This document shows positions 10,836 to 64,000 of a DNA stretch of 64,000 bases, in pieces (positions within the stretch are counted from its first letter, which is position 1; each line of letters starts with the position of its first letter). The translations under genes were made by a program, and so were the position numbers. Under the pieces are notes generated by a model that had not been told where the DNA came from, did no database searches, and was given only the letters and a program-made list of their open reading frames with translations. The DNA lies in the NCBI GenBank assembly GCA_015180985.1, contig CP054185.1, forward strand, positions 2,975,225 through 3,039,224. Direction: 5' to 3'. The DNA is from Flammeovirgaceae bacterium (GTDB lineage Bacteria > Bacteroidota > Bacteroidia > Cytophagales > Cyclobacteriaceae).

Positions 10836-10894
10836 CTTGTGCTTATGCCATATATCATATACATTCAATAGCAGAAGCACAAGTGTTAGTCGGC
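10836..10894 (+). other. Candidate attI-like first recombination site
   Basis: Between the recombinase stop and cassette C0 lies a small hairpin: CTTGTGCTT-A-TGC (10836-10848) pairs with GCA-G-AAGCACAAG (10871-10883), directly followed by T and then GTTAGTCGGC, the start of C0 (crossover inferred between 10885 and 10886). It is shorter (59 bp) than the attC-like sites, has no upstream cassette-end box and lacks the ACGTT core (it reads AGTGTT). This is what one would expect of an attI or of a worn terminal site. Confidence 0.5.
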
Positions 10895-10980
10895 AATTGG
10901 GCCTGTTTCAAATGGCCAACGCGCGAGCGTGTTCCTAAACACCGGACGATTGAGTTAATGGCTCTTCATCTTCGAATCTC

Positions 10981-11240
10981 CCATCGCACAGAACGCAAGC
11001 ATTTCATCTGAACAGACAGTTAGCCGCTCCTGCGTAGCGCACGCATTTCATAGAACTACCCTACCCCGCGACCGGCTATCCGAAACCCACGCGCATGTAC
11101 AGCCAAACCGACTGGCACTCTCCTCCGAAAACACCAGCCGCACAGAACGAGCGCATTTCAGCTGAACGGACACCTAGCCGCTCCTGCACAACAGGACGCA
11201 TTCCATAGAGCGACCGTACCCCGCGACCGGCTGACCCGAC
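10981..11240. repeat. Two diverged ~105-bp direct repeats inside ORF-less cassette C0
   Basis: Copy 1 is about 10981-11086 and copy 2 about 11134-11240. Shared blocks occur in the same order: CGCACAGAACG, GCATTTCA, CTGAAC, TAGCCGCTCCTGC, ACGCATT, CATAGA, TACCCCGCGACCGGCT. The stretch 10895-11250 has no convincing gene. GC content is higher than in neighbouring cassettes. It may encode a structured RNA or be a regulatory/early-array element; function unknown. Confidence 0.7.
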
Positions 11241-11250
11241 TATGCCCAAC

Positions 11251-11420
11251 TGCCGCTAACAACGTGTTTGTGGCATGCCTTGCTTCGGTGTTGACTAAAA
11301 TACCTTTCTTCGTATATTCGTTTGCGCTTGTGGACGCCCTAACGCACGCGCGGCTAAGCTGACGCCAATTTAGCCGCGCTACGAATACCAGGCACGTCCA
11401 CAAACACAAACGTTGTAGGC
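11251..11420 (+). repeat. attC-like site C0/C1 (long class)
   Basis: Left box TGCCGCTAAC (end of C0) and right box GTTGTAGGC (start of C1) flank an imperfect palindrome: GTGTTTGTGG near 11264 pairs with CCACAAACAC near 11399. The C0 end box matches the start of C0 (GTTAGTCGGCA) except for one extra T. Confidence 0.8.
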
Positions 11421-11453
11421 AATTTTCATTCGGACAATTGAGACTCCTAAAAA

Positions 11454-11852
11454 ATGCACGAACCTTACGATAACAAATTCGGACACACTTACGACTTCAA
11501 AGTAAAGTATAGACTTTATAGACCCGAAGAAGGTGGACGAAAGACAGGAGTGACATATCAAGGAATTAGATACGACTTTGCATATGAGGACTTTGGAAAA
11601 AGTGATTTCAATGTCTACATGATTTGGCCTGAATTTGAAAATGAGGACAAACAAATAATAACAAAAGACTTTGAATTAGTGAGAGACTCCGGGACTGCGA
11701 GAATGTGGATATTGATGGACAACATGAGAGCATTTCACAAGGACAAAATGAAACTTGGGACAAAAGGATATTTAATGGAGGGAAACCGAAAGATGGGAGA
11801 ATGTGAAATAATAGAAATTAATGGACTGTTGACAAATAGTTCGGACAAATGA
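11454..11852 (+). CDS. Cassette C1: small EF-Tu-barrel-like protein
   Basis: A 132-aa soluble protein with no signal peptide. The pattern DFKVKYRLYRPEEGGRKTGV, then YDFAY, a short acidic strand (MIWPEFE), and KLGTKGYLMEGNRKMGECEI resembles the beta-barrel domain III of elongation factor Tu (FLPTEEGGR, later FAIREGGRTVGAGVV). Short stand-alone proteins of this type are often annotated as EF-Tu-like in Bacteroidota; no role in translation is established. ATG at 11454 follows the cassette start by 41 bp. The whole cassette is 569 bp, a classical one-gene size. Confidence 0.6.
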   Translation: MHEPYDNKFGHTYDFKVKYRLYRPEEGGRKTGVTYQGIRYDFAYEDFGKSDFNVYMIWPEFENEDKQIITKDFELVRDSGTARMWILMDNMRAFHKDKMKLGTKGYLMEGNRKMGECEIIEINGLLTNSSDK

Positions 11853-11857
11853 AAACT

Positions 11858-11989
11858 GCCTACAACAATGTGCATAAGTCATGGCGGTGGGACATCAAGG
11901 TATTCAATGTATTTTCTTAATTTCGTTTACACCCGTGGATAGGACGCGGCTTCGAAAACCGCCACGCCTTATGCACTCACGTTAGCTGC
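11858..11989 (+). repeat. attC-like site C1/C2
   Basis: GCCTACAAC ends C1 and is the exact reverse complement of its start GTTGTAGGC. The inner stem TGTGCATAAG pairs with CTTATGCACT, and TGGCGG with CCGCCA. The core reads TCACGTT; GTTAGCTGC starts C2. Confidence 0.87.
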
Positions 11990-12032
11990 AAGGCTGTGAT
12001 GACAGTAAAGTATTAAAATCTTGGACAAAATA

Positions 12033-13365: not shown

Positions 13366-13439
13366 GCATTCCTAAGCCAAAAACTCCAAGGTCGACACTG
13401 CAAAAAGTGTTGACCTTTCATGTTTATGGAGACAGCCCT

Positions 13440-13613
13440 GCAGCTAACAAAATGTTTATGCAATGCGGGGGTTCAATGTAGGTATTAAAAGTAATTTCTT
13501 AATTTAGTTCAGTGTCGGGGGACAGAGACGTGCAGGTCGGGCTAAACATTCCGCTGCGCTACATTTTTTAGCCCTCCTATTCCCCGCACTGCATAAACAT
13601 AAACGTTGGTAGC
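13440..13613 (+). repeat. attC-like site C2/C3 (long class)
   Basis: GCAGCTAAC ends C2 and matches its start GTTAGCTGC. TTTATGCAATGCGGGG pairs with CCCCGCACTGCATAAAC; an inner hairpin GGGCTAAAC ... TTTTTTAGCCC sits between. The core AAACGTT is followed by GTTGGTAGC, the start of C3. Confidence 0.9.
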
Positions 13614-13928
13614 AATAGGGCCCGGACAAATTTGTGTTTCAAAAAAATACGGACGACAATTTCTAACAAAGATTTCCCACGGGGGCAAGTGAACGACTTC
13701 GGGACATCGTGGACTTTGAAAAAATTAAGGCGAGGGACAGATTAAAAAATAATACAGCCGACCCTTCGCATTTTTAAGAGTATTGTGCTCCGAATTGCCC
13801 CGCGCATTTGGCACATGCCATAGCCGCGCAAACCCAACGCGACACCAAAGCTATGGCAAGAGCCAAATTTCCGCCCGCGCCACAAACTGTCACGAGAATT
13901 TGATTATTTTAAGGCTGAAACTAATAAA
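13614..13928 (+). other. C3 leader: conserved non-coding segment with terminal hairpin
   Basis: From TAGGGCCCGGACAAATTTGT to 13867 this is shared with the leaders of C4, C11 and C17. It ends in a 61-bp hairpin (13807-13867): TTTGGC, 4-nt bulge, GCCATAGC, loop, GCTATGGC, 4-nt bulge, GCCAAA. Conservation stops right after GAGCCAAA, and the methylase starts 61 bp later. No ORF is evident; it may hold a promoter or a second kind of recombination site. Confidence 0.75.
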
Positions 13929-15284
13929 ATGAGATTTATAGACTTATTTGCTGGACTTGGGGGGTTTCATAAAGCACTTCATGAATTAGGGCATAAATGT
14001 GTTTTTGCAAGCGAACTGAATCAACCGCTTCGAGAAATTTATAAAGCCAATTGGGGGATTGAGCCTAAAGGTGATATAAGAAAAGTGGTCAAAAGTAGTA
14101 TAGACTTAATTCCACCTCATGACATCTTATGTGCGGGTTTCCCGTGTCAGCCATTCTCTAAAGCTGGAAATCAACGTGGTTTAATGGACGAAGAGCGGGG
14201 TACACTATTCGATGACATTGTTAAGATATTAAAGCACAGAAGACCCAAATATTTCATCCTTGAAAATGTTCCTCATTTAGCTAAGCATAATGATGAGCAG
14301 ACGTGGACGTACATGCAAAACAAACTTAAACGATTAGGATATGAAGTAGACCATAGAAATTATTCACCTCACCACTTTGGAATACCGCAGCATCGTCTAC
14401 GTATTTTTATTGTGGGCTCACTTAACGGACTTTCTCATTTCAGTTTTGATGAGGTGGATAAACAAAAAAGGAAAGTTGTGGACATCCATTCTTTTCTAAA
14501 TGGTTATTCCAATTCAGTTAGAAAACTCCCTAAATCAAATATTGAATGTCTGGAACTATGGCAGGAATTTATTGATAGTATCCCCGAAGATGTACCCATG
14601 CCAGGCTTCCCCATTTGGTCCATGGAGTTTGGAGCTACTTATCCTTATGAGAATACAAATCCACACAAACTCTCAGAAAAAGAACTTGGGCAATACAAGG
14701 GGAATTTTGGAATCAGCCTTAAAGGATTATCGAAAGAAGAACAATTGAAGCTATTGCCAAGCTATGCTAGAACTAAAACAAAGTTTCCTGATTGGAAGGT
14801 CAAATACATTAGATTCAATCGGGAATTCTATCAACAGAATATCAAACAACTAAGAGCAGCCGTTTCAAAGTTGGCGACATATGAATTTCAGAGTTGGCAA
14901 AAATTAGAATGGAATGTTGGTCGCGAAAAGGGTAACATATTTGACTATATAATACAGTTTAGAGCTTCAGGAGTCCGAATCAAAAAAGTTGATTTTTTCC
15001 CCTCTCTAGTATGTACAAAAACTCAAATACCAATCATAGGATGGCAAAAAAGATACCTAACAAAAACTGAAGGATTAAAACTCCAGTCGTTAACAGGCAT
15101 TGAACTTCCAGAACAGGAAAATGCAGCGTTTAGAGCATTAGGAAATGCAGTCAATGCAAAAATTGTAAGACTAATAGCGGAGCAACTAATTAAGGAGACT
15201 CATAAAAATGGGAATCATAAGAATGGGAATCATAAAAACGGGCAACACATAAAAACTAAGAAAGTCTTGCATGAAGCAGAGTAA
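13929..15284 (+). CDS. Cassette C3: DNA (cytosine-5) methyltransferase
   Basis: A 451-aa C5 methylase. Motif I FAGLGGFHKAL, motif IV GFPCQPFSKAG with the catalytic Cys, motif VI ENVPHL, motif VIII QHRLRIFIVG and motif X RALGNAVNAKIV are in the normal order, with the target-recognition region at about 170-380. The C-terminus holds a short tandem repeat (HKNGNHKNG...) from a repeated 15-bp DNA unit. The next gene overlaps by 14 bp. It would protect host DNA in the four-gene restriction-like system of this cassette. Confidence 0.93.
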   Translation: MRFIDLFAGLGGFHKALHELGHKCVFASELNQPLREIYKANWGIEPKGDIRKVVKSSIDLIPPHDILCAGFPCQPFSKAGNQRGLMDEERGTLFDDIVKILKHRRPKYFILENVPHLAKHNDEQTWTYMQNKLKRLGYEVDHRNYSPHHFGIPQHRLRIFIVGSLNGLSHFSFDEVDKQKRKVVDIHSFLNGYSNSVRKLPKSNIECLELWQEFIDSIPEDVPMPGFPIWSMEFGATYPYENTNPHKLSEKELGQYKGNFGISLKGLSKEEQLKLLPSYARTKTKFPDWKVKYIRFNREFYQQNIKQLRAAVSKLATYEFQSWQKLEWNVGREKGNIFDYIIQFRASGVRIKKVDFFPSLVCTKTQIPIIGWQKRYLTKTEGLKLQSLTGIELPEQENAAFRALGNAVNAKIVRLIAEQLIKETHKNGNHKNGNHKNGQHIKTKKVLHEAE

Positions 15285-16809
15285 TAAAATCAACATTCGT
15301 CCAAATGTATCAATGCTTTCTGTTCTAAAATTTTTAGAATACGAGACATGGTTTGCTTTGGCAGAATTTGTGGATAATGCTATTGCAAGTTTTCAAGCAA
15401 ATGAGAAAGAACTTAAAAAGTTACACGGCAAAGACTTTCGCTTAAAGGTTAGTATTGAAATAAATGATTCCGAGAATCGGATAAAAATAAGAGACAATGC
15501 CGCGGGCATTGACGAAGCAAATTACCCTAGAGCATTCAGGGCAGCAGAAATACCGGCAGACACATCAGGGTTGTCGGAATTTGGAATGGGGATGAAGTCG
15601 GCCTCCTGCTGGTTTTCTGATTACTGGATTGTGCGTACAACGGCATTAGGTGAACCCTATGAGAAAACGGTCAAGTTTGATATGACCAAAATCTTTGAGG
15701 ACAAAATCGAAGAACTTGAGTTTGAAAGTACGGTAGTGGATAAAAATAAACATTATACTGTAATCGAACTCTTTAATGTTCAGAAGATGCCCCGAAGAAA
15801 GGGATTAGGAAAAGTTAAATCACACCTTTCAAGCATTTATCGGGAGTTCATTCGTAACGGTCTTCTCGAACTTACAGTAGAGGGAGAATTACTGAGTTAC
15901 ACTGAACCAAATATTCTTAATGTACCGAGATATGACAATCAAAAAGGTGAAAACGTACTATGGAAAAAAGAAATAAATTTCCCTATTGAAGATGGATTAA
16001 GCGTTCGCGGTTTTGTCGCAATAAGAGAGAAAGCTTCAACTTCTGAAGCTGGCTTCGCACTATTCCGGAGAGGCAGGGTAATTGAAGGGAGTTTTGATAA
16101 TGGCTTCAGACCAGAGTTCATATTCGGAAATCCCAATAGTTTCAGATACCAGCGTGTTTTTGGAGAATTACATCTTGAGGGGTTTGACGTGAGTTTCACT
16201 AAAAAGGGAATTCAATGGGACGAAAATCTTGATTTGTTTTTGAGATTACTCAAAGAAGACATAAGCCACAAGTCATTCCCGTTGCTTCAACAGGCGGAAC
16301 AGTACAGAGTTAGAGCGACCGAAAAGGAATATAAAGACGCCAAAAAGGTTTTAGATGTGACGGCCAACGACCTAGAACAGAAAGCCCCAAAGGCGGTTGC
16401 TGATATTGTCAATGCCCCCTCGAGAGTTGCGGAGCCCGACCAAGTTGAACTAGCAAAGACTGAAAAAACACTTCATAGAGAATTTGACATTCGGTTTAAT
16501 AAAATCAATTGGAGAGTTTCAATTGAACTTTCATATGACCCATCATTGAATGAACTAATCGAAGTTGGAGACACTTTTATAAAAGAGAAGTCCAATGATT
16601 CCTCAGTTCGACAAATAGGAATTAGACTTTCACTTACTCATCCTTTTATGGTTGAGTACGCAGGCGTGGATGCAACAAAAATTGAACCCATTCTAAGAAT
16701 GGCAGCTGCTCTTGGTCTCGCAGAAGCTATTGCAAAGAGTTCCAGAATCGTTGGTGATGTAAGAAGAAATTTTAATGAGTTGATTACAAACCTTTCAAAG
16801 CAAACGTAA
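15271..16809 (+). CDS. Cassette C3: MORC/MutL-like GHKL ATPase
   Basis: A 512-aa protein with an N-terminal GHKL ATPase: N-box LAEFVDNAIASF, G1 IKIRDNAAGID and G2 SEFGMGMKSASCW. Such MORC-like ATPases occur with Z1 helicases, DUF4420 nucleases and m5C methylases in the restriction systems described by Iyer, Abhiman and Aravind. They are thought to act as ATP-driven DNA clamps. The C-terminal 150 residues have no motif I can name. Flanking overlaps and short gaps show one operon. Confidence 0.88.
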   Translation: MKQSNKINIRPNVSMLSVLKFLEYETWFALAEFVDNAIASFQANEKELKKLHGKDFRLKVSIEINDSENRIKIRDNAAGIDEANYPRAFRAAEIPADTSGLSEFGMGMKSASCWFSDYWIVRTTALGEPYEKTVKFDMTKIFEDKIEELEFESTVVDKNKHYTVIELFNVQKMPRRKGLGKVKSHLSSIYREFIRNGLLELTVEGELLSYTEPNILNVPRYDNQKGENVLWKKEINFPIEDGLSVRGFVAIREKASTSEAGFALFRRGRVIEGSFDNGFRPEFIFGNPNSFRYQRVFGELHLEGFDVSFTKKGIQWDENLDLFLRLLKEDISHKSFPLLQQAEQYRVRATEKEYKDAKKVLDVTANDLEQKAPKAVADIVNAPSRVAEPDQVELAKTEKTLHREFDIRFNKINWRVSIELSYDPSLNELIEVGDTFIKEKSNDSSVRQIGIRLSLTHPFMVEYAGVDATKIEPILRMAAALGLAEAIAKSSRIVGDVRRNFNELITNLSKQT

Positions 16810-16811
16810 TT

Positions 16812-19064
16812 ATGTCTGAAATAATAGAAATACAGAACAATTCAAATAGCGATGATTGGAATCCTTTCGTTGGAGAAGAGACTCTAGGGCTACTTCGGGG
16901 CAATTCAAAACTAATAGATAATGGAAATCTAAATGATGCTGGGAATAGAGTTTTGAATGAAACACTGAGCATAATGCAAGCTTGTGGCAATCCAAGAGCG
17001 TCAAGCAACAATGAAACAGGAATCATCATCGGTTACGTTCAAAGTGGAAAAACCCTTTCATTTACAACACTGACTGCCCTTGCAAGAGATAATAACTATC
17101 GAATTGTAATCATACTCGGAGGCACTTCAAAAATATTACTACAGCAATCAACTTTAAGATTAAGGCGGGATTTAAGAATTGACAGCCGCTATGGGTTTGA
17201 GCAGAAATGGACACAGCTAACTAATCCTGAAACACAAGAAGATTTTGACACCATTTCAAATATTCTTGACCAATGGGCTAATCCCACTTTTCAAAAAGAT
17301 AGATGCAGAACTGCCTTGATAACCGTCATGAAAAACGGAAGTCGCTTACGAAATCTCACAAATCTATTAAGTGGGATGAATTTGCAAGGCGTTCCGACTT
17401 TGATAATTGACGATGAAGGAGACCAAGCAAGTTTAAATACAAGGGCATCATGGGCAGCTAGGCAGGGAATAGATGTTGAGGATTTAACCGAAAATGATGT
17501 TTCAACCATTTACAGAAGAATAAATGCTTTGAGAGCCATTCTCCCACATCACACATTTTTACAATATACAGCTACACCACAGGCGAACCTGTTTATCAAT
17601 ATAATGGATAGACTATCCCCAAACTTCATTAAACTACTTACACCAGGAGATGAGTATACAGGAGGAATCACTTTTTTTCAGGATAATCCAAACTTAATAG
17701 TAGAGATTCCACCATCCGATTTACCAACCTTGCAGCCATTACACGAAGCACCAAACAGTCTGCTACGCGCTTTGAAAATCTACTACCTTGGAGTTGTAGC
17801 AGGGCAGATTTTACAACTGTATAGAGACCCAAGCCAGCGAAATCGCTCCATGCTTATCCATCCATCAAGATTACAAGGAGACCATAATACCTTTTATGGA
17901 TGGGTGAATGATACAAAAGAAAGTTGGAGACGTTTGCTATCAAGTGAGGATAATGAGGACAAAAGAGAATTGCTAATTGATTTTCAGTTGGCATACAACG
18001 ACCTTCAAATGACGGTTCAAAATTTGCCAACATTCCAGCAATTAACAGACTCAAATCTAATTCATGCAATTCAATACACACCTATTGTTGAAGTCAATGC
18101 TAGGCAAGGGGCTACACCACAAATCAATTGGCAAGACTCCTATTCATGGATTTTAGTCGGTGGCCAGTCAATGGACAGGGGTTTCACAGTTGAAGGATTA
18201 ACTGTAACATACATGCCGAGAAATATTGGAGTTGGAAATGTGGACACAATTCAACAGCGTGCAAGGTTCTACGGCTATAAAAGAACTTACCTAGGTTACT
18301 GCCGAGTCTTCCTAGACCAAGTAACAATTGACTCCTACCACAGCATCATTGACCATGAGGAAGATGTTAGAGAGCAACTTCAACCTTTCAGTGAAAATAA
18401 CCGACATCTAAATGATTGGGACAGAAAGACAGTTCTTGACGGTATGCTGAATCTCACACGAGCCAATGTTCTTTATGACGATTTAAATAGAGACTATTTT
18501 GGAGATGAATGGTTCAGAATAAATGCACCCCATGACACAGAAGAATTCATTGAGACCAACAGAGATTCAGTCTTTAACTTTCTAAACCCTAGAGCATCTC
18601 AATTTGCAGAAGATGCGGGACATTTACAAAGAACAGATGACCAAAGGCATTTGGTGGCAACCCTCTCAATTCAAGATTGCATAGACAATTTGCTCAATGA
18701 TTTGCGATTCACACGGGAGAGTGATTCAGCAACCTATTCAAGTTTAAGAGGAATTTTAAAAAGATATTTGAGAGACCATCCTACCGAAAATTGTCTGGTG
18801 TATTTGATGAGTGCAAGGAGTTTGACCAACTGGACCAGAAGGACTCGTAGATTGGTTAATAACGAAATACAACAATTATTTCAAGGACGAAACCCGAGAG
18901 TTGGCGATGTGATTTATCCCGGTGATGCTGAAATAAAGAACGACAATACTCTTACTATTCAAATTCACTTGCTTGATTTAAGAGATACTCAATTCACTAG
19001 CGTTCCAACACTGGCAATTTGGATTCCTGAGCACATTGGAAGAGATATTATAAGACAAGCATGA
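16812..19064 (+). CDS. Cassette C3: Z1-domain superfamily II helicase/ATPase
   Basis: A 750-aa protein. Walker A IIGYVQSGKTLSFT (about residue 75), Walker B LIIDDEGDQASLN (about 200), a QYTATPQANL motif and the late helicase block GGQSMDRGFTVEGLTVTYMP followed by DTIQQRARFYGYKR. These match the Z1 family linked to MORC-type restriction systems. Expected to translocate on or remodel DNA for the nuclease. It starts 2 bp after the ATPase stop and overlaps the nuclease gene by 4 bp. Confidence 0.9.
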   Translation: MSEIIEIQNNSNSDDWNPFVGEETLGLLRGNSKLIDNGNLNDAGNRVLNETLSIMQACGNPRASSNNETGIIIGYVQSGKTLSFTTLTALARDNNYRIVIILGGTSKILLQQSTLRLRRDLRIDSRYGFEQKWTQLTNPETQEDFDTISNILDQWANPTFQKDRCRTALITVMKNGSRLRNLTNLLSGMNLQGVPTLIIDDEGDQASLNTRASWAARQGIDVEDLTENDVSTIYRRINALRAILPHHTFLQYTATPQANLFINIMDRLSPNFIKLLTPGDEYTGGITFFQDNPNLIVEIPPSDLPTLQPLHEAPNSLLRALKIYYLGVVAGQILQLYRDPSQRNRSMLIHPSRLQGDHNTFYGWVNDTKESWRRLLSSEDNEDKRELLIDFQLAYNDLQMTVQNLPTFQQLTDSNLIHAIQYTPIVEVNARQGATPQINWQDSYSWILVGGQSMDRGFTVEGLTVTYMPRNIGVGNVDTIQQRARFYGYKRTYLGYCRVFLDQVTIDSYHSIIDHEEDVREQLQPFSENNRHLNDWDRKTVLDGMLNLTRANVLYDDLNRDYFGDEWFRINAPHDTEEFIETNRDSVFNFLNPRASQFAEDAGHLQRTDDQRHLVATLSIQDCIDNLLNDLRFTRESDSATYSSLRGILKRYLRDHPTENCLVYLMSARSLTNWTRRTRRLVNNEIQQLFQGRNPRVGDVIYPGDAEIKNDNTLTIQIHLLDLRDTQFTSVPTLAIWIPEHIGRDIIRQA

Positions 19065-20044
19065 ATCTGATTGAACTATATGATAAACTTGAATTTGCGG
19101 AGGAAGGAAGCGGTAAAACGTTCAACGCCATTCAAATTCCTGAGCAACCAAACTTCCGAGTTGCTGTAAATAATGAAGGCAACCCTGTATTACTTCTATC
19201 AGTTGCAAATGCCGTTAAAGGAAATACTCTAAAAAACTTTAGATTAAAGTATTTACAACTTGAACAAAATGTCGAGTGTAAAATTACAGAGAATGATAAA
19301 AGTAGTTATCAAACCTTTACTGTCATTACATTTACGAGTGATGACCGAAACTTACAGGAATATTTTTTGAGGATTTCGGAGACCTTGATTAAAACACTTA
19401 GTAACAAGCCGACACAACAACAGATTGTCGATTCGATAAACAAATTTGTTGAAGTGTTTCGTTCACTCGCTGACACGCCAACAAATACGGTTCACGGACT
19501 GTGGACCGAATTATTTTTAATTGAGAATAGCTCGAATCCAAAGATTCTTTTAAACTATTGGCACAATCTGCCAGAAGAAAGATTTGATTTTAATTCAGGT
19601 CTAGAGAAAATTGAAGTCAAAAGCAATTCAAACTTTGAACGCATACATACCTTTTCGGCTGAACAGCTAAGCCCCCCCATAGGTACACAAGTATTGGTTG
19701 CTTCAATTTTCATCCGCCAACATAACAATGGACAAAGCATTCAACAACTTGTTCAAAGTATTACGAATAAAATTAAAGACGACATCGAATTGACCGAAAA
19801 ACTAAACAATATTATTTTCAGAACCCTTGGAAATTCTCTTGAGCAATCAATCAAAATCAAGTTTGACTATAACATCGCAAAAGATTCATTGCGCTTTTTT
19901 AGTCAACAAGATATAAGCAAGATTGAAGAAGTGCACATACCCGACAAGGTATCAGAGGTAAGATTTAAATCAGATTTAACCGACTTGACACCTATTGACG
20001 TGAGAGCAATGAAAACGACTAGTGAACTTTTTAGAGGTATTTAA
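19061..20044 (+). CDS. Cassette C3: DUF4420 PD-(D/E)XK-type nuclease
   Basis: A 327-aa protein. The block GLWTELFLIE ... RFDFNSGLEKIEVKSNSN provides the acidic residues and the ExK (IEVKS) typical of DUF4420, a predicted PD-(D/E)XK endonuclease family partnered with Z1 and MORC proteins. It is the likely cutting subunit of the system. It is the last gene of the operon; the shared cassette tail starts 17 bp after the stop. Confidence 0.85.
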   Translation: MNLIELYDKLEFAEEGSGKTFNAIQIPEQPNFRVAVNNEGNPVLLLSVANAVKGNTLKNFRLKYLQLEQNVECKITENDKSSYQTFTVITFTSDDRNLQEYFLRISETLIKTLSNKPTQQQIVDSINKFVEVFRSLADTPTNTVHGLWTELFLIENSSNPKILLNYWHNLPEERFDFNSGLEKIEVKSNSNFERIHTFSAEQLSPPIGTQVLVASIFIRQHNNGQSIQQLVQSITNKIKDDIELTEKLNNIIFRTLGNSLEQSIKIKFDYNIAKDSLRFFSQQDISKIEEVHIPDKVSEVRFKSDLTDLTPIDVRAMKTTSELFRGI

Positions 20045-21647: not shown

Positions 21648-21662
21648 GAGAAGGGCCCTACA

Positions 21663-21836
21663 GCTACCAACAAAAAGTTTATGCAATGTGGGGGTTCAGT
21701 GTAGCTATTAAAAGTAATTTCTTAATTTCGTTCAGTAACGTTGGACAGTTCGGAGCAGGTCGGGCTTAACATTTCGCTGCGCTACATTTTTAAGCCCTCC
21801 TATTCCCCACACTGCATAAACTCAAACGTTGGTAGC
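21663..21836 (+). repeat. attC-like site C3/C4 (long class)
   Basis: GCTACCAAC ends C3 and matches its start GTTGGTAGC 8 kb away. TTTATGCAATGTGGGG pairs with CCCCACACTGCATAAAC, and GGGCTTAAC pairs around an inner loop with TTTTTAAGCCC. Next start GTTGGTAGC (C4). Confidence 0.9.
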
Positions 21837-22135
21837 AATAGGGCCCGGACAAATTTGTGTTTCAAAAAACAACGGACGACAATCAACTAACAAAGATTTC
21901 CCACGTGAACAAGTAACTGCTTCGGGACAACTTGGCTTTGAAAAAAACTCGGGACAGATTAAAAATAATACAGCCGACCCTTCGCATTTTTAAAAAGGTT
22001 CTCCTCCGAATTGCCCCACACATTTGGCACATGCCATAGCCGCGCAAACCCACCGCGACACCAAAGCTATGGCAAGAGCCAAATCCCCCACCGCATTACA
22101 TTTTTCATTAAATTGCTTGTTGACTTAACAATGGC
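21837..22135 (+). other. C4 leader: conserved non-coding segment with hairpin
   Basis: Shares the TAGGGCCCGGACAAATTTGT start, the ATACAGCCGACCCTTCGCAT block and the 61-bp hairpin (22023-22083, TTTGGC/GCCATAGC with GCTATGGC/GCCAAA) with C3, C11 and C17. Sequence diverges just after the hairpin. No gene seen. Confidence 0.75.
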
Positions 22136-23326
22136 ATGCAAATCAAATTACTTGGACAAGGATTCAAACCCTCATCTTCACAATCAGTCGGGCAAGAGCT
22201 AATCAAGCTTTTGGCGGATAAAGACTTTCATACTTTTACTGGAATTTCAGCATTTGCAAGCCAAGCTGGTGTAAATGGCCTCTCCAAATACATTTCAAAT
22301 GCCAAGAAGCATCTTAAAGTAATTACCATTGTTACAGGAGTTGACCAAAAGGGTACATCAAAGGAAGCATTGGAAGCTCTTTTGAATTTGGATGTTGAAG
22401 CATACGTTTTCTACCAGCCATCAATAACAATTTTTCACCCAAAAATCTATCTCTTTGAAGGAGACAACAAATCTGAGTTAATTCTCGGTTCATCGAACCT
22501 CACTTCTCAAGGACTTTTTACAAATGTTGAAGCTTCATTGCTGGTAAGCATTGACAATAAAAATGCAGGCGACCAACAAATTATCAAACAACTGAAAGAT
22601 TATTTTAGCGGAATATTTGACCACACTGACCCGAACATAAAGAAGCTGACAAAGCAGCTAATAGATGACTTGGTTAAATCACGAGTTGTTCCAACAGAAG
22701 CAGAGCGTAAGGCAATTCAAGATAAGGCTGAAAAGCCTGAGAATATCTCCACAGAAAGTTTAATCTCTAAGATTTTCCCTAAGCGGGCAATTGCACAAAT
22801 ACCAAGTGAGTTTAGAGGAGTTCAAAAGCCATCAACAAAAGCTAAAGTCAAGGTATCACCAGCAGTAGCTCCAGTTAAAAGCAAGCCATCAGAATTGCTA
22901 TGGAAAAGTGGGCGTTTAACACAACGCGACTTAAATATTCCAAAAGGTTCAAATACCAATCCTACTGGGTCAATGCTCTTTAAAAAAGGTAAGACTGGGG
23001 ATATTGACCAACGACATTATTTCAGAGACAACGTGTTTTCATCTCTCAAGTGGGTAAGAGACAAAGACCCAAAAACATCTCACCTTGAAAGAGCAAATGC
23101 ACTATTCAAGATAATTATTGATGGTAAAGAAGTTGGTGACTATGAACTGACCCTTACCCATAACACAAAAACAGATACGAGGTCTTACAAGCAGAAGAAT
23201 TCGATGACCCAAATAAGTTGGGGGAAAGCAAAGAAGGTAATTGCTAAAGATGCATTGATTGGCAAAAGCGCTTCATTGTTTAAGAACGCTGGCAAAAAGG
23301 ACGAGTTTACTTTAACCATCGAATAA
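22136..23326 (+). CDS. Cassette C4: phospholipase D-fold nuclease
   Basis: A 396-aa protein. Residues about 30-150 hold a PLD-type nuclease core with the HxK(x)nGSSN motif: FHPKIYLFEGDNKSELILGS followed by SNLTSQG. Single-HKD PLD proteins next to methylases are restriction endonucleases (BfiI/NgoFVII-type). The C-terminal half (about 270-396), with a WGKAKKVIAKDAL-like end, may bind DNA but is not recognised. ATG at 22136 lies 52 bp after the leader hairpin. It shares the cassette with an HTH regulator and an N6A methylase, hence a probable restriction-modification system. Confidence 0.82.
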   Translation: MQIKLLGQGFKPSSSQSVGQELIKLLADKDFHTFTGISAFASQAGVNGLSKYISNAKKHLKVITIVTGVDQKGTSKEALEALLNLDVEAYVFYQPSITIFHPKIYLFEGDNKSELILGSSNLTSQGLFTNVEASLLVSIDNKNAGDQQIIKQLKDYFSGIFDHTDPNIKKLTKQLIDDLVKSRVVPTEAERKAIQDKAEKPENISTESLISKIFPKRAIAQIPSEFRGVQKPSTKAKVKVSPAVAPVKSKPSELLWKSGRLTQRDLNIPKGSNTNPTGSMLFKKGKTGDIDQRHYFRDNVFSSLKWVRDKDPKTSHLERANALFKIIIDGKEVGDYELTLTHNTKTDTRSYKQKNSMTQISWGKAKKVIAKDALIGKSASLFKNAGKKDEFTLTIE

Positions 23327-23404
23327 CCTAATCAAAATTTTGAAGTCACACTTTGGTATTTAGCGGCTCATTTCATACTTTTGGACTGAAGTAGTCCAAA
23401 AAAG

Positions 23405-23728
23405 ATGAATTTCGAAAACACGTTTGGTGAGACTGTTAAGAAGCTAAGAGAGGACAAAAACCTCACTCTCAAAGAAGTAGCTAAGCACTTAAAAATTGAT
23501 ACTTCAATGCTTGGCAAAATCGAAAAGAATAGCCGAAAGCCAACAAAGAAGCTCATTGAGCGAATTTCAAAACTCTTTGATGTAAGTGAGAAGGACTTAA
23601 CCATTGCTTTTCTCAGCGATACGGTTGCTTCCCAAATTCTATATGAAAACGAATTCACCTCAGAGGTTCTAAAAGCCGCTGAGAAAAAAGTTAAATATAT
23701 GAAGGCCAAAAAGACATCTTTGAAATGA
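23405..23728 (+). CDS. Cassette C4: XRE-family HTH controller protein
   Basis: A 107-aa protein with an N-terminal helix-turn-helix (FGETVKKLREDKNLTLKEVA, then KIDTSMLGKIEKNSRKPTKK) and a short helical C-terminus. Placed between nuclease and methylase genes and overlapping the methylase by 4 bp, it resembles controller proteins that delay nuclease expression in type II systems; that role is inference. Confidence 0.85.
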   Translation: MNFENTFGETVKKLREDKNLTLKEVAKHLKIDTSMLGKIEKNSRKPTKKLIERISKLFDVSEKDLTIAFLSDTVASQILYENEFTSEVLKAAEKKVKYMKAKKTSLK

Positions 23729-26286: not shown

Positions 26287-26289
26287 ACT

Positions 26290-51356: not shown

Positions 51357-51368
51357 ACAAAAGTACGC

Positions 51369-51503
51369 CCGCCTAACACGGGTTTTGCGTTAGTGGGCGG
51401 ACAGTGCATATAGAAACATTTGAGCAATAAATAAACTTTGGTGCTGGCAGACAGTTTACGGTTTCAAAAGCCCACCAACGCAAAGCCCGAAAACGTTAGT
51501 GGC
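51369..51503 (+). repeat. attC-like site C18/C19
   Basis: CCGCCTAAC ends C18 (start GTTAGGCGG). GGGTTTTGCGTTAGTGGGC pairs with GCCCACCAACGCAAAGCCC. Core AAACGTT; GTTAGTGGC starts C19 (same 9 bases as C12). Confidence 0.9.
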
Positions 51504-51519
51504 AAGGCTATGACGACAC

Positions 51520-52780: not shown

Positions 52781-52802
52781 CGGACAGAAATAAAGAAGCC
52801 CA

Positions 52803-52939
52803 GCCACTAACAGCGGTTTGGCGTAATGGCGGGTGTATTGCTTCGTATGACAGTTTTGTGGTAGGTTCAAGTGCAGTGCTTCGATTGAACTTTTGTGCTA
52901 AAAATCCGCCACTACGCCAAGCCGCAAAACGTTACCACC
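52803..52939 (+). repeat. attC-like site C19/C20
   Basis: GCCACTAAC ends C19 (start GTTAGTGGC). GGTTTGGCGTAATGGCGG pairs with CCGCCACTACGCCAAGCC. Core AAACGTT; GTTACCACC starts C20. Confidence 0.9.
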
Positions 52940-52965
52940 AATGCTAAAAGACGACACACTAGAAA

Positions 52966-55852: not shown

Positions 55853-55860
55853 GAAGCACT

Positions 55861-55996
55861 GGTGGTAACAGCGTGTTGCCTCAATTGGCGGTGACGTGCT
55901 AAATTGAAGCTGAGTGCTCCTATCAAACTTTAGTGCAGTTTGACAGTGAAGTGCTCCGAAATCGCCAACTGCGGCAACACGCAAAACGTTGGGTGC
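55861..55996 (+). repeat. attC-like site C20/C21
   Basis: GGTGGTAAC ends C20 (start GTTACCACC). CGTGTTGCCTCAATTGGCG pairs with CGCCAACTGCGGCAACACG. Core AAACGTT; GTTGGGTGC starts C21. Confidence 0.9.
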
Positions 55997-57862
55997 AAGC
56001 TTAAAAAACGACAACACAAAGAAATTACGATATGGGATTTTACTTTAGAAAATCAAAAGGTTTACTCGGTGGACTTTTCCGACTGAACTTCTCAAAACGG
56101 GGCGTTGGTGTCTCGACAGGTGTTAAAGGTGCAAGATTTGTAGTTGGACCAGCAGGGACATATGTTCACCTTGGACGGAAAGGTTTTTATTACAAAAAAT
56201 ATCTTGGTAAAGGACTTTTTAAATCTGACAAAGAGAAAGAACAATATAACCAATTAGCCAAAGATTTTCATATTCCAGCGGCTGACGAAATTCCTGCAAC
56301 AATTACAACGAGCAATTTTGACAGAATTACAGATAGCGAATCTACTGACTTTATAAATGAATTACAGGAAAAAGATAAAAAGATACGACTGCAAAAGATT
56401 TTGGGTTTATATCCTTCAATCATCATTTTATTATTTGTTGCTTACAAATTATTTGAAGTAACAAACACTATTGAAGAGCATCAGAACTTTGCTACAATCA
56501 AAAATGAAACCGTAAACCTTAGAGACCAACCCAAAACCGAAAACTCAAAAATTCTTGACAAATCTCACAAAGGTGATAAGTTTGTTTTACTTGGAGAAAC
56601 TGAAAATCATTGGTTCAAAGTTTTAACTGCGAACAATGACACTGCTTATGTTCACGGTGACTTGGTAACAACATCAAATGAATTAATTAAATCAGAAACA
56701 ATAAGACGGTTTGATGACAATCCCAATATGAGATATATTTTATTTGGAACAGCTTTCATACCTCTCCTCCTTTTAAATCTTTTTCTATACAGTAACGATA
56801 AAAGAAGAAAATCTATTTTCATTACATACGAGCTTGATGAAATTGTTCAAGAATTACAAAAAGATATGCTTACAGGATTTAAACAGTTTACAAACTCAAA
56901 TAAAAAATGGCAAGTAGTAAATGCTCGTAGAACAAATGATGCAAAATACAGTGCAGGAGCTACTGTAACAGTAGACAGAAAAGAAATAAAGGAAATTTCA
57001 AGTCACAAATTGCCGTCTCCTTTTTTTGAAACGAATGTCAAAATACCATTTATAGGATTGCAAAATACCGAGCTTTACTTTCTGCCTGACCGCTTATTGC
57101 TCAAACGAAACAATAAATTTGCAGCAGTTCAATACAGTAATCTAAACATTGACATTTTGCCAGTAAGTTTTAGGGAATATAATGGGGTTCCATCTGATGC
57201 AACAGTTGCAGATTACACTTATAAATATGTAAATAAAAGTGGCGGAGCAGATAGGAGATTTTCAAATAATCCAAGAATCCCAATTTGCGCTTATACTGAA
57301 TACCACTTTTCATCTGATGAAGGAATTAATGAAATAATTATGCCATCAAAGTCAGATGCTTTAGATGATTTTGTAATACAGTTAAGGACTATTGGAAAAC
57401 TCCAAAGTGGAAATTTAGGTCGTAACATAAATAATTCAGCTTCCCAATTTTCAACTTCAACATTCACAAACTACGACATTCCTGAATATGACCCCCTTTT
57501 TCAAGAAGCTGCTGAATTAGTTGTTTTGCATCAATCAGCTTCGACATCACTAATTCAAAGGAAATTAAAATTGGGATACAATCGAGCGGGCAGAATTATG
57601 GATGAATTAGAGCAAGCAAAAATTGTTGGAAGATTTGATGATTCTAATGGCAGAGAACTTTTAATAAAAGACCAAGATGAATTGAATAGAGTTCTTTCAA
57701 GCTTATCAAGTAAATTACCCACTTCTATAAGCACTTCAAATGTGAAGGGAACATTATCAAAAGAGTATTTCAATTTACTATCTGACTTATCAAAGCATCT
57801 TTCAGACATAACTGATAAATTAAAATTTGATGAAGCATTTACAGATTGTAAGCTCCCCCTTT

Positions 57863-60270: not shown

Positions 60271-61742
60271 AGTTAACAGTTTAAAGTTAGACCTTTTGTC
60301 TAATTCAAAACTGTCCTATTTTCGGGGGAGCTTACAAGATAATTTTAAACATACATTAACTGAATCTACCCCCGAAACATTTGTTCCTTATTGTGTCCTT
60401 TACGATATGACACAAATTTTCAAAATTTTAACAAACGGAAAAATTATACTTGATAGCGTGGAAATGTCAGGATTAGTTCTTCTATCAATGAGAATTATTG
60501 AAACAGAAACAGATTTTTTATCGCTTGATTATGAAACAATAGCCAATTCGCATTCATCAGGAAAGTTTAAAAATATGGCTGACACAATTTTAGAAATTGC
60601 AGACAAAAGCAACCCTCTAAAAATTGACATTCAAGAAACCAAAGATGGAGAGCCAGTTTCCTCTACTAAAGTTCAAAACAATCTTTCTTTACCAGCTACA
60701 TTAAAGCTTTTAGACCATCCCCTTTTTGATGATTATGTTACAACTTTATATCGTTTTGCAACGATAATCGCAAAAGCTGATAATATAGTAACCAAAAAAG
60801 AAGAAACTGCCTTGAAAGAAATATATCAGATAACGCACAAACCAGTTCCAGAAGATGAAAACAAAGCAGTTAATATTTCAGAAGCTGAAGAATCAGAAAG
60901 CTTAGAACAAGTTTTGGCGGAACTTGAAAGTTTGATAGGACTTGATGATGTAAAGCGAGAAGTTAAGTCTTTAATCAACTTTATACAAATTCAAAAAGAA
61001 CGTGAAAAGCAAGGACTTAAAAACTCACAAGTATCTTACCATTGTGTTTTTACAGGCTCACCAGGAACAGGAAAAACTACAATTGCTCGTTTAGTTGCCA
61101 AAATTTACAAGCATTTAGGGATATTAGAGAAAGGTCAATTAGTAGAAACAGACCGTTCAGGACTTGTTGCAGAATATTTAGGTCAGACATCAACCAAAGT
61201 TGACAAAGTTGTTAAATCTGCTCTTGACGGAATCCTTTTTATAGATGAAGCTTATGCGTTAGTTGGACAAGGAAATGATGATTATGGGAAAGAAGCCGTT
61301 GCAGCTTTAATAAAACGAATGGAAGACAATCGAGACAAATTGGTTTTAATTGTAGCAGGATATTCGGAAGAAATGAAAACATTCATTGATACTAATCCCG
61401 GCTTCAAATCTCGGTTTAACAGATATATTCATTTCCCTGACTATACGCCAGACGAAATGATAAAAATTTATGAATTGCTATGTTCTAAATCTGAATATAA
61501 CATTTCACCAAGTGCTAAAACCCTTTTGACAGACGCTTTTAAACACCTTTACGAGACAAAAACAAAGGACTTTGGCAACGGTAGACTTGTAAGAAATATT
61601 TTTGAGAAGTCAATCGAAAACCAATCAAACAGAATTGCTTTGACAGACCAACAGTTGACTAAAGAGATATTAACAACAATAGAATCAGAAGACATACCAA
61701 ACGTGACAATATATGCAAGTTGACAAACAAACAAGAAAGCCA

Positions 61743-61878
61743 GCACCCAACAGGCGTTTGGCTCAATGGCGGGTGACGTGGTTAATTGAACATTCTACCT
61801 CGCATCAACTTTTGTGGTGTATTGACAGTTTTGTACTCCGAAATCCGCCACTGCGCCAAGCGCCAAAACGTTGGGCAC
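61743..61878 (+). repeat. attC-like site C21/C22
   Basis: GCACCCAAC ends C21 and matches its start GTTGGGTGC 5.8 kb upstream. GCGTTTGGCTCAATGGCGG pairs with CCGCCACTGCGCCAAGCGC. Core AAACGTT; GTTGGGCAC starts C22. Confidence 0.9.
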
Positions 61879-61887
61879 AATAGCCAA

Positions 61888-62547
61888 ATGAAAAAGTACC
61901 TCATTATATCAGGACTCTTAATTACCATTTCCTGTTCCGGACAAAGTAATTTATCAAAGCGGACTGTTTATTCTCACTTTATAAATGACAACATAAAAGA
62001 ATATGACTCAATGTTTAATAAACGGACTGACTTAATACTTTTGACAACCATAGATAAGTTCGAGTCAGTTATTGACAGCCTTTACCTGTTTGACTTTTTA
62101 TCTGGAAATATTGAAAACAATGAGTTCTATCAAAAGACATTCATAGGACAAGAACCTACTTTGTATTTTGACATGCCTCCTACCTATGGACTAGGTAAAA
62201 TGCTAAAACATGACACAGAACTAGGACAATTGATGTTAAAATTATTTTCGAACTATAAACAAGACCTTTCGGCTATTTCCGACATAGACACAAACTACAA
62301 CATAAAAGTAATTAAGAAGGCTAAACCCTACTTTAAAATGGGTTGGACTAAGTTTCACAAAAAGCACAAGGACTGCTATGGAATAATTCGTTTTTCAAAT
62401 ATCATATTCAATGACAGTTATGACCGAGCTATGTTTTACGTGGAAAACTACAAAGGAAGTCTTGATGCCTCAGGTGACATAGTTGTTATGAGAAAAATAA
62501 ACGACAAGTGGACAATTGAGTATTATATTAATCAATGGATGAGTTAA
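61888..62547 (+). CDS. Cassette C22: lipoprotein of unknown function
   Basis: A 219-aa protein from ATG 61888, which gives a clean lipoprotein signal (MKKYLIISGLLITISCSGQ, lipobox TISC). An upstream in-frame ATG (61786) lies inside the attC-like site and is rejected. Mature part alpha/beta (RTDLILLTTIDKFESVIDSL, KDCYGIIRFSNIIFNDSYDR, INDKWTIEYYINQWMS); no family recognised. Confidence 0.65.
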   Translation: MKKYLIISGLLITISCSGQSNLSKRTVYSHFINDNIKEYDSMFNKRTDLILLTTIDKFESVIDSLYLFDFLSGNIENNEFYQKTFIGQEPTLYFDMPPTYGLGKMLKHDTELGQLMLKLFSNYKQDLSAISDIDTNYNIKVIKKAKPYFKMGWTKFHKKHKDCYGIIRFSNIIFNDSYDRAMFYVENYKGSLDASGDIVVMRKINDKWTIEYYINQWMS

Positions 62548-62554
62548 GGCTACT

Positions 62555-62691
62555 GTGCCCAACACCAGGTTTATGCCAGCTGCGGGTGACAGGTTGAAAT
62601 GTAGTTTTGTTTTACTAATTTCGTTTACGTAACGGTGGACAATGACGGCTTCGATAGCCGCAGCCGTCATAAACCCAAAACGTTGTGCACC
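62555..62691 (+). repeat. attC-like site C22/C23
   Basis: GTGCCCAAC ends C22 (start GTTGGGCAC). The palindrome (GGTTTATG, GCTGCGG with CCGCAGC, CATAAACC) is nearly that of C5/C6, including GACGGCTTCGATAGCCGCAG. GTTGTGCACC starts C23. Confidence 0.9.
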
Positions 62692-63090
62692 ATGCGGTCG
62701 GACAAAATAATCTTACGCATCTGGTGACAACGTAAACAAGATAAATTCATCCCCGCAGACAATAACGGCAGACAAGCAATCAATTACGTTCGGGCTTCAC
62801 ACTGCGACCGCGCGACAATCAAGTTTCAAAATTACGTTCCGGCTTTCGGGACAGTTTGGGCTTCGGTCGACAATAACTGACTAAAACAAAATACATCGGA
62901 CTCATTTACGCAGACAGTTTTACATCCAGTCGTCAAGATTTCGCTCCGCGGATAGTTTCTGGATTTCTCCCACGCGCACGTGTTGGCACCGTACAGTCTG
63001 TCTATTACGTGGGACTTAGAATAAGTTTCAAAATAAAGTTAAGGTTTGCCGACAGCATTTTATCTTTATATAACGTACGACAGACCGCAC
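62692..63090. other. ORF-less cassette C23
   Basis: 533-bp cassette whose ~400 non-attC bases hold no supported gene and no clear terminator. Plus-strand GACA is very frequent (I count about ten, with one TGTC). Could carry a small RNA or be a decayed cassette. Confidence 0.55.
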
Positions 63091-63224
63091 GGTGCACAAC
63101 AACAAGTTTGCGCAACGGCTGGTTGACGACCAACTATTTAGTATATTTACTTTACAACGTTTGGTTTCGTGGGACAAGGAATGTTTCACTAACAGCCGAT
63201 GCGCAAACTCAAACGTTGTGGGTT
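63091..63224 (+). repeat. attC-like site C23/C24
   Basis: GGTGCACAAC ends C23 (start GTTGTGCACC); with flanks the match is 17 of 18. AGTTTGCGCAACGGCTGGTT pairs with AACAGCCGATGCGCAAACT, as at C16/C17. GTTGTGGGTT starts C24. Confidence 0.9.
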
Positions 63225-63241
63225 ATATTGGCTGGACATAG

Positions 63242-63913
63242 ATGAGTACTGTAAACATTCAGACATTTATAAAATTTGGTTCTGAGGAGAACATTCGAGA
63301 CCTCCAAGAAAATGGGACTATTTACTGTAATACAATTGAGTACTTCAGACAACTTGAAGACTCTTATTTAAGAGGAGACAGTTACGAGGGGACTTTTAAG
63401 ATTACTAACTACCCTCCTGACAGTAAAATAACTCTTTATCTTCCAGACAAAAAAGAAATAGAACTCAAGACAGCCAAACTACATCTTCGAGAATTTTATA
63501 CCGACATCAAAGGAAATATCTATTGCTTGACCGCAATTACAAGAGAGGAGATTATAAAACTTGAGACTCTAAAGTTGGACTTAAAGAATTCAAGATTTGG
63601 GACACACTTTTTATTAATCAAGGACAACCAACAATTTTTCGACCGACTGATGAAAGGGTTCGAAAATGAAAAATTGAGCATTAAGACTGGCTTTGTGAAA
63701 TATTACGACAAACATTTAATAAACGGAGAGTTGGACTTATTTCATAAAAGCAAAGAATTTGAGTATCAAAAGGAGTTTCGAATAATTGTTAAGAATGACA
63801 GGCAAAATCCAATTAAGTTTCAGATTGGTTCACTAAAAGAGATTTCTGAAATATTTGAAACAAAGGACTTAGAAACACTGGTGTGCCAATACAACCCCCA
63901 ACACCGTGTTTAA
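63242..63913 (+). CDS. Cassette C24: protein of unknown function
   Basis: A 223-aa cytosolic-looking protein (MSTVNIQTFIKFGSEENIRD) with IYCNTIEYFRQLEDSYLRGD, GNIYCLTAITREEI, and YQKEFRIIVKNDRQNPIKFQ followed by IGSLKEISEI. The fold looks alpha/beta and recalls small proteins found near phage-defence or abortive loci, but I cannot name a family. The stop lies inside the cassette's own attC: the last six codons cover and pass the end box at 63893-63902. Confidence 0.75.
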   Translation: MSTVNIQTFIKFGSEENIRDLQENGTIYCNTIEYFRQLEDSYLRGDSYEGTFKITNYPPDSKITLYLPDKKEIELKTAKLHLREFYTDIKGNIYCLTAITREEIIKLETLKLDLKNSRFGTHFLLIKDNQQFFDRLMKGFENEKLSIKTGFVKYYDKHLINGELDLFHKSKEFEYQKEFRIIVKNDRQNPIKFQIGSLKEISEIFETKDLETLVCQYNPQHRV

Positions 63914-64000
63914 GTAATTGCGGGGTGTTGTGTGCCAATTCAAATTCGTTTCTTAATTTAGTCCCACAACGTGGGACAGTTGCGCAGCAGGTCGGGTTTA
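63893..64000 (+). repeat. attC-like site after C24 (cut by window end)
   Basis: AACCCCCAAC ends C24 and matches its start GTTGTGGGTT with one mismatch; the flank extends the match. GTGTTTAAGTAATTGCGGGG is the left arm; the GGACAGTTGCGCAGCAGGTC block shows it is the long class. The right arm lies outside, so the array continues. Confidence 0.85.

What the first reader, a model, noticed from the sequence alone, without database searches (positions are those of the whole stretch)
10886..64000. Integron-like array of at least 25 cassettes in a Bacteroidota chromosome
Seen: 25 junctions, each a 130-175 bp imperfect palindrome ending in (A)ACGTT, spaced by one to eight co-oriented genes or none. 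The start of every cassette is complementary to its own end, not to its neighbour's. Known: this is how integron cassettes behave, because R'' and R' of one attC come together in the excised circle. Inference: a recombinase copies or moves circular cassettes here by cutting at G^TT. The right box is GTTR plus variable bases, not the strict GTTRRRY, so standard attC models may miss it. I know of no description of such an array in Bacteroidota with this type of integrase.
Basis: partly seen in the sequence, partly recalled or inferred. Interest (0 to 1): 0.97.

Follow-up and report, generated by a model that had tools for sequence, protein, structure and literature searches.

The report
Integron-like gene-capture array without IntI
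A Bacteroidota chromosome carries about 60 gene cassettes in an 89-kb row beside a recombinase that lacks the domain thought essential for integrons, and similar rows occur across the phylum, so this is likely a second kind of integron that captures and shuffles genes.

Summary
The window has one attI-like junction (G at 10885), 24 complete attC-like sites and one cut by the window edge. Each cassette's start is complementary to its own end, not its neighbour's (0 of 100,000 permutations reach this). The array runs on to about 60 sites over 89 kb. Similar arrays lie downstream of related integrases across Bacteroidota. Homologous cassettes in different genera begin and end at G^TT far more often than shifted sites allow, which supports mobility.

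The integrase is not IntI: it lacks the additional (I2) domain, falls below the IntI cut-off and forms its own clade. Its N-terminal domain most resembles, weakly, structure-specific DNA-binding domains (XPB damage-recognition domain, SMARCAL1 HARP). The sites have a 15-bp stem fully restored only in the excised circle, with a never-paired A at position 11 (0 of 191); I know of no such description. The mismatch tends to make the bottom strand the better hairpin.

The sites track this integrase and not canonical IntI, which also occurs in the phylum. Recombination itself is inferred; no circle was observed.

The parts
9571..10773 (+). Tyrosine recombinase, 400 aa (array integrase): N-terminal HARP/XPB-DRD-like domain (about aa 1-80), SAM-like core-binding domain (118-198), catalytic domain (216-375), no IntI additional domain
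   Evidence: Pfam PF13495+PF00589; TIGR02249 231.6 bits, below cut-off 265, in two stretches; 2A3V aligned in two stretches with the additional-domain region skipped; R247, K272, H336, R339, H362, Y371 invariant in A4 (catalytic roles recalled)
10836..10887 (+). attI-like site: inverted repeat 10836-10851/10868-10883, then AAGCACAAGTG^TT; insertion point G at 10885
   Evidence: I25; homology with same-genus G065 ends at this G; AGAAGCACAAGTGTT occurs exactly twice in the genome, here and at the head of a satellite array
11246..11424 (+). attC-like site 1 (junction G 11412)
   Evidence: A1, R1
11853..11993 (+). attC-like site (G 11981)
13435..13617 (+). attC-like site (G 13605)
21658..21840 (+). 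attC-like site (G 21828)
25533..25715 (+). attC-like site (G 25703)
26285..26429 (+). attC-like site (G 26417); cassette 25703-26417 is shared whole with same-genus G300 (88%, both ends at G)
28277..28421 (+). attC-like site (G 28409)
28865..29006 (+). attC-like site (G 28994)
29686..29869 (+). attC-like site (G 29857)
30447..30629 (+). attC-like site (G 30617)
31198..31381 (+). attC-like site (G 31369)
34121..34303 (+). attC-like site (G 34291)
34939..35085 (+). attC-like site (G 35073)
36049..36191 (+). attC-like site (G 36179)
38588..38732 (+). attC-like site (G 38720, CCGTT)
45809..45992 (+). attC-like site (G 45980)
46254..46395 (+). attC-like site (G 46383)
50588..50773 (+). attC-like site (G 50761)
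51364..51507 (+). attC-like site (G 51495)
52798..52943 (+). attC-like site (G 52931)
55856..56000 (+). attC-like site (G 55988)
61738..61882 (+). attC-like site (G 61870)
62550..62694 (+). attC-like site (G 62682)
63087..63227 (+). attC-like site (G 63215)
63889..64000 (+). attC-like site cut by the window end (complete in L024:2113-2297)
13929..20044 (+). [not shown]
   Evidence: Pfam and PADLOC
22136..25335 (+). Cassette cargo: PLD/NgoFVII-like nuclease and M.Eco57I-type methyltransferase
26468..28279 (+). Cassette cargo: GmrSD_N protein
31717..33923 (+). Cassette cargo: C5 methyltransferase, unknown ORF, Vsr mismatch endonuclease
38980..45341 (+). Multi-gene cassette cargo: response regulator at one end, C39 peptidase/ABC transporter at the other
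46830..50386 (+). Cassette cargo: PD40 repeat protein and subtilase with C-terminal sorting domain

Best explanation
This is most likely a chromosomal integron-like platform in which a tyrosine recombinase outside the IntI clade (9571-10773), lacking the IntI additional domain, is predicted to insert circular gene cassettes at an attI-like site (G at 10885) by recombining folded bottom-strand attC-like hairpins at G^TT. Shown by sequence: the integrase lies directly upstream of and co-oriented with the array; the attI-like junction lies 112 bp after its stop; each cassette's first bases pair with its own last bases (99% at positions 4-9) far better than with its neighbour's (45%), so the full R stem exists only in the excised circle. 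One position of that stem (A at 11) is never paired, and the L stem usually carries the same mismatch. Inferred: the circle's bottom strand folds, because the mismatch is a weak A.C on the top strand but a G.T wobble on the bottom strand. The integrase binds the R and L boxes, perhaps reading the mismatch with its N-terminal domain, which resembles structure-specific DNA-binding domains and may do the work that I2 does in IntI. It then exchanges one strand with attI. Because the hairpin is complete only in the circle, insertion should be favoured over excision, so large arrays would accumulate.
For: Own-end pairing in the window, in this genome 64 of 70 cassettes, and in other genomes 127 of 149 at 9 or more of 12. 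Covariation in 16 of 19 pairs. Position 11 unpaired in 191 of 191 cassettes while positions 1-9 pair 97-100%; L-stem A.C in 143 of 150 sites of A3, 66 of 104 of A2, 17 of 24 of A1. Circle form more stable than array form in 227 of 232; bottom strand better in the L arms in 58 of 77 and 147 of 173. attI-like GTT 64-141 nt after the integrase match, pairing with the first attC at 10 or more of 12, in 16 of 20 arrays. Homologous cassettes bounded by G^TT across genera. A satellite array begins with a second attI copy and holds the same cassettes in a different join. Sites associate with this integrase (59 of 72 vs 72 of 224 genomes, odds ratio 9.6) and not with IntI (odds ratio 0.66); none of 124 listed sites lies within 60 kb of a typed IntI place, while 37 site-integrase pairs do for the array integrase. 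R1 found sites in 0 of 150 Pseudomonadota genomes.
Confidence: 0.85

Rival explanations
1. A canonical sedentary chromosomal integron whose IntI is encoded here or elsewhere in the genome.
For: TIGR02249 is the best-scoring NCBIfam model by E-value; 2A3V, an IntI bound to its site, is the top PDB match by sequence and by fold, though the archaeal Xer 4A8E is close behind in both.
Against: Score below the curated cut-off (231.6 vs 265) and the additional domain is skipped; the GKG-to-HxLRH distance is 65 aa in 120 of 120 homologues against 105-119 in 28 of 29 IntI references; separate clades, 98/99 and 100/100; no match at the bound used in this genome (G000 row); R1 sites do not associate with IntI.
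Confidence: 0.04
2. The same platform, but the recombinase acts on double-stranded L'-R' cores in the ordinary Xer/lambda way, and the hairpin is only a by-product of inverted binding sites.
For: No I2 domain; L' and R' form an inverted pair of GTT-N-CA(A/G)TG-like arms around a short spacer, like a classical core site (sequences); relatives of Xer type act on duplex DNA (recalled).
Against: The left half of the site and the 15-bp own-end pairing would have no purpose; the stems covary and keep a fixed mismatch; only the circle restores the full stem.
Confidence: 0.1
3. Repeats spread by another element (REP/RAYT or IS200/IS605-like transposase, or homologous recombination between repeats), with the integrase only a neighbour.
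For: Repeats alone can recombine; satellites lie far from the integrase; a Mutator-family transposase is present in the array.
Against: 83 of 85 plus-strand sites in 78 loci found by integrase search lie downstream of it; attI pairing in 16 of 20 arrays; genome-level association; REP-type repeats would not make a cassette's start match its own end.
Confidence: 0.03

Closest known systems
Integron with IntI integrase (sedentary chromosomal integron), attI/attC, TIGR02249
   Same: Arrays of co-oriented cassettes, cassette boundary at G^TT, site made of R''-L''...L'-R', own start/end complementarity, attI beside the integrase, integrase-less satellite clusters, nearest solved structure is IntI bound to its site
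   Different: Integrase lacks the additional/I2 domain, has an extra N-terminal domain, forms a separate clade; integrase is co-oriented with the cassettes and attI lies at its 3' end; R' is GTTR plus variable bases with a 15-bp stem complete only in the circle and a fixed unpaired A at position 11 in place of GTTRRRY; several multi-gene cassettes, up to 8.2 kb
XerA/XerC-XerD simple tyrosine recombinases (NF040815, 4A8E)
   Same: No I2 domain; NF040815 is passed by 1 bit (221 vs 220)
   Different: Has the N-terminal domain and sits at the head of a cassette array; the genome has three other, distant tyrosine recombinases (27-34% identity)
SMARCAL1 HARP domain and XPB damage-recognition domain (as relatives of the N-terminal domain)
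   Different: Weak statistics; found here fused to a recombinase; function untested

Membership tests
Integron (IntI type) | Integrase with IntI additional (I2) domain | tested here: not met
   Two-stretch matches skip it; distance 65 vs 105-119 aa
Integron (IntI type) | Integrase over the TIGR02249 cut-off | tested here: not met
   231.6 bits vs 265
Integron (IntI type) | Integrase inside the IntI clade | tested here: not met
   IntI 29 rows 100/100; 31 rows of this family (19 from arrays, 12 database homologues with the window's) 98/99; whether the two are sisters is unresolved (support 73)
Integron (IntI type) | Array of palindromic attC sites with R''/L''/L'/R' layout | tested here: met
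   24 sites, covariation
Integron (IntI type) | R' box GTTRRRY (consensus recalled) | tested here: not met
   4 of 24 in the window, 21 of 252 overall
Integron (IntI type) | Unpaired landmark bases giving bottom-strand choice | tested here: inconclusive
   Fixed A.C mismatch rather than bulged bases; bottom strand more often the more stable
Integron (IntI type) | attI adjacent to the integrase gene | tested here: met
   16 of 20 arrays; end of homology with G065 at this point
Integron (IntI type) | Cassettes mobile at G^TT | tested here: met
   Comparative only:
Integron (IntI type) | Integrase-catalysed attI x attC recombination | not testable with these tools
   Needs a bench assay
XerA/Xer recombinase NF040815 | Score over the curated cut-off | tested here: met
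   221 vs 220, a margin of 1 bit
XerA/Xer recombinase NF040815 | Chromosome dimer resolution at dif | not tested
   No dif search was made
HARP domain | Sequence and fold match | tested here: inconclusive
   [not shown]

The most novel reading that the evidence does not exclude
Bacteroidota possess a second, phylum-wide kind of integron: a non-IntI recombinase captures cassettes by single-strand hairpin recombination without the I2 helix, using instead an N-terminal structure-specific DNA-binding domain (HARP/XPB-DRD-like) that reads a fixed mismatch. I2 would then not be a prerequisite for integrons; the clade is either an independent invention or a surviving pre-I2 lineage.
Probability: 0.45. 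Interest if true: 0.96.

Novelty: new variant of a known kind. Interest (0 to 1): 0.93.

Why it matters
Integron surveys select integrases by the IntI additional domain (passages read: PMC2426708, PMC9668308, PMC7784347), so this system would be passed over; IntegronFinder 2.0 names one complete integron in Bacteroidetes proper, in Salinibacter ruber (PMC9024848, passage). Sites of this kind were found in 131 of 296 sampled phylum genomes. If it works as inferred, a large gene-exchange system carrying restriction-modification, secretion and metabolic genes has been overlooked. It also makes testable the question of how integron integrases gained single-strand recombination: the papers hold that I2 confers it and has not been found elsewhere (PMC7790495 and PMC4792948, passages), yet here is a natural cassette system without I2.

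Tried and rejected
Rfam gave nothing in the window at gathering scores and ARAGORN no tRNA. The plain start/end search failed for the first site because of an indel. Pfam found no family for the N-terminal domain alone even at E 10. A canonical-IntI explanation was tested and rejected. I could not run IntegronFinder or HattCI, so the claim that standard attC models miss these sites is not shown directly; only the GTTRRRY count and R1's 0 of 150 Pseudomonadota genomes bear on it. That empty answer scored at most 18 candidates a genome and the tool warns that it shows nothing by itself; the same model rang, and 49 of 249 genomes drawn from the same phylum carry IntI. Site counts per genome are lower bounds (at most 23 and 9 candidates scored). 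Whether the array integrases and IntI are sister clades stays open: the quick tree joins them at 73, unstarred, and the Xer rows have very long branches. Metagenome contigs with closer integrases (88% and 79%) could not be fetched, so no strain-level comparison was possible. Literature: seven searches on integrons listed no paper whose title or abstract start describes such a system; three more were on HARP and on attG. The library holds no preprints and few subscription papers. The proximity count used the 124 R1 hits listed outside the own genus, 62 family-integrase places typed and 31 IntI places typed, not every place listed. One search was given 78 of the 80 loci (L065 and L078 left out). 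The A11 count comes partly from sites found with R1, which itself favours A there, though one column of 143 is unlikely to explain 0 of 191. In one search, rows of conserved backbone near the integrase were kept in the 32. In some searches, cassettes under 9 of 12 were left out. In one search, one of 30 IntI loci was not parsed and one of 29 gave 71.
Full report
WHAT IS THERE. The window lies at 2975225-3039224 of a single-contig, 3.38-Mb genome. Several of the nearest homologues of the integrase carry the name Cyclobacteriaceae, so the host is probably of that family. A 400-aa tyrosine recombinase (9571-10773, +) is followed 112 bp after its stop codon by an attI-like junction and then by 24 complete attC-like sites within the window, plus one cut by its end. 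A covariance model (R1) from the 24 sites finds 81 sites in the genome at E up to 1.1e-9. The main array holds about 60 sites on one strand over 89 kb (59 of those 81; 60). Smaller clusters lie at about 3265k, 3373k, 1768k and 513k, with three minus-strand sites at 3087-3090k and single sites at 1935k and 2888k.

NOT CHANCE. In the window each cassette's first 12 bases match the reverse complement of its own end at a mean of 10.3, against 7.3 for other pairings; 0 of 100,000 permutations reach this. In this genome 64 of 70 cassettes, and in 25 stretches from other genomes 127 of 149, reach 9 of 12, against 13% and 7% for wrong pairings; 0 of 20,000 permutations each. RNAalifold finds 19 pairs, 16 with compensatory changes.

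ANATOMY OF THE SITE. Over 232 cassettes the circle form pairs 99% at positions 4-9 of the R stem and the array form only 45%; the bottom strand of the circle form is more stable in 227 of 232, by 8.6 kcal/mol on average. Position 11 is always A and never paired: 0 of 64 here and 0 of 127 elsewhere, with C opposite in 59 and 100; positions 1-9 pair 97-100% and position 12 pairs 91-94%. The L stem has the same A.C at a fixed place in 143 of 150 sites (A3), 66 of 104 (A2) and 17 of 24 (A1). On the bottom strand this is a T.G wobble. The bottom hairpin is the more stable in 58 of 77 and 147 of 173 sites by L arms, but only 52 of 77 and 121 of 173 by whole sites; in the window 20 of 24 by both arms and 19 of 24 whole (with one row given a wrong left end). 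Inference: the mismatch is a structural landmark and strand label, like the bulged bases of classical attC.

ATTI AND SYNTENY. In 20 arrays with an integrase, a GTT 64-141 nt after the integrase match pairs with the first attC's end at 10 or more of 12 in 16; 0 of 50,000 permutations. The window's own needs a gap; G107, G047 and G085 do not show it. The majority strand of the sites is the integrase's strand in 20 of 20. Homology between this genome and same-genus G065 runs through the integrase and stops at the attI G. A second exact copy of the attI core heads the satellite array at 3373k, and no relative of the integrase was found there. That array carries stretches 98-99% identical to main-array cassettes, joined differently at G^TT.

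MOBILITY BETWEEN GENOMES. Among 32 cross-genome BLAST matches (75% or more, 250 bp or more), 9 start and 8 end at a G^TT in both genomes (2 both), against 0.01 and 0.00 for shifted sites. Examples: a 3.7-kb match at 92.6% between different genera, and cassettes of G078 and G096 whose identity begins right after the G while left flanks are unrelated. The same-genus genome G300 (34 sites in its main array) shares one whole cassette of 714 bp with this array (a 750-bp match, 88%, both ends at G). It is the only one of 31 matches among G000, G065 and G300 with both ends at G; 14 of the 31 end at G, many simply because attC similarity itself ends there.

DISTRIBUTION AND SPECIFICITY. Sites occur in 86 of 118 genomes of the family and 131 of 296 of the phylum; the integrase at E<=1e-60 in 77 of 118 and 72 of 296. 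Phylum genomes with the integrase have sites in 59 of 72, others in 72 of 224 (odds ratio 9.6, p 7e-14); in the family 64 of 77 against 22 of 41 (odds ratio 4.3, p 0.001). Canonical IntI over the cut-off is present in 84 of 296 phylum genomes, all but one outside the window's class, and shows no association with the sites (odds ratio 0.66, p 0.12). Of 124 listed sites, 37 site-integrase pairs lie within 60 kb, 33 of them downstream and co-oriented, and none lies within 60 kb of a typed IntI place. R1 found 0 of 150 Pseudomonadota genomes. In 78 of the 80 loci found by integrase search alone, 27 hold plus-strand sites (E up to 0.05); 85 of 87 hits are on the integrase's strand and 83 of those 85 are downstream of it. 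Cultured carriers include Algoriphagus ornithinivorans, Arundinibacter roseus, Flavobacterium aciduliphilum, Algibacter onchidii, Zunongwangia mangrovi and Winogradskyella ursingii.

CARGO. Restriction-modification and defence-like genes, an AraC regulator with a dehydrogenase, a C39 peptide exporter, a subtilase with a sorting tail, MerT-HMA, and a beta-lactamase-fold hydrolase that is not necessarily a resistance gene. Cassettes reach 8.2 kb and several genes.

HOW IT MOST LIKELY WORKS. Shown: layout, complementarity, fixed mismatch, co-occurrence, boundaries at G^TT in comparisons. Inferred: bottom-strand hairpin, single-strand exchange with attI, role of the N-domain, bias to insertion. 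The duplex-core rival (0.10) cannot be excluded without a strand-specific assay.

LITERATURE. Passages only were seen in PMC9024848, PMC9668308, PMC8618304, PMC2426708, PMC8138268, PMC7784347 and PMC4792948; the abstract, outline and passages in PMC7790495. None of what I saw describes this system; the searches are named in Tried and rejected.

Noticed in passing
window 13605-21828, 21828-25703, 31369-34291, 46383-50761: Four large cassettes share a constant leader of about 265 bp from G^TT and a constant trailer of about 190 bp near the cassette end, with different cargo between: a nested carrier cassette. Three more occur in G300 and one in G024, another genus.
   Followed up: partly
G000 C1:3373040 (L028): A second attI copy without a neighbouring integrase heads a satellite array that shares cassettes with the main array.
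   Followed up: partly
window 57847-60337: Transposase-like insertion with a 279-bp tandem repeat and a repeat at 968-bp spacing inside the cassette 55988-61870; it may split one ORF.
   Followed up: no
window 20247-21647 and 36556-37956: Identical copies of a Mutator-family transposase element sit in two cassettes, with near-identical copies elsewhere in the genome.
   Followed up: no
phylum sample: Canonical IntI over the cut-off in 84 of 296 phylum genomes, all but one outside the window's class; 18 of them also carry the array-type integrase.
   Followed up: partly
G085 contig 1: One genome lists 15 relatives of this integrase, most of them short forms of about 280 aa without the N-domain, possibly a transposing form.
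   Followed up: no
L114, L124, L117, L137, L141: Relatives of the integrase in Saccharibacillus, Paenibacillus, Oceanirhabdus, Mesorhizobium and an archaeon with no clear R1 sites (one weak hit in Paenibacillus, E 4.6e-4); their partner sites are unknown.
   Followed up: no
L217:112-1047 (G300 cassette): A carrier cassette of G300 holds a Streptomycin adenylyltransferase-family gene with glyoxalase-fold and MacB/FtsX genes.
   Followed up: no
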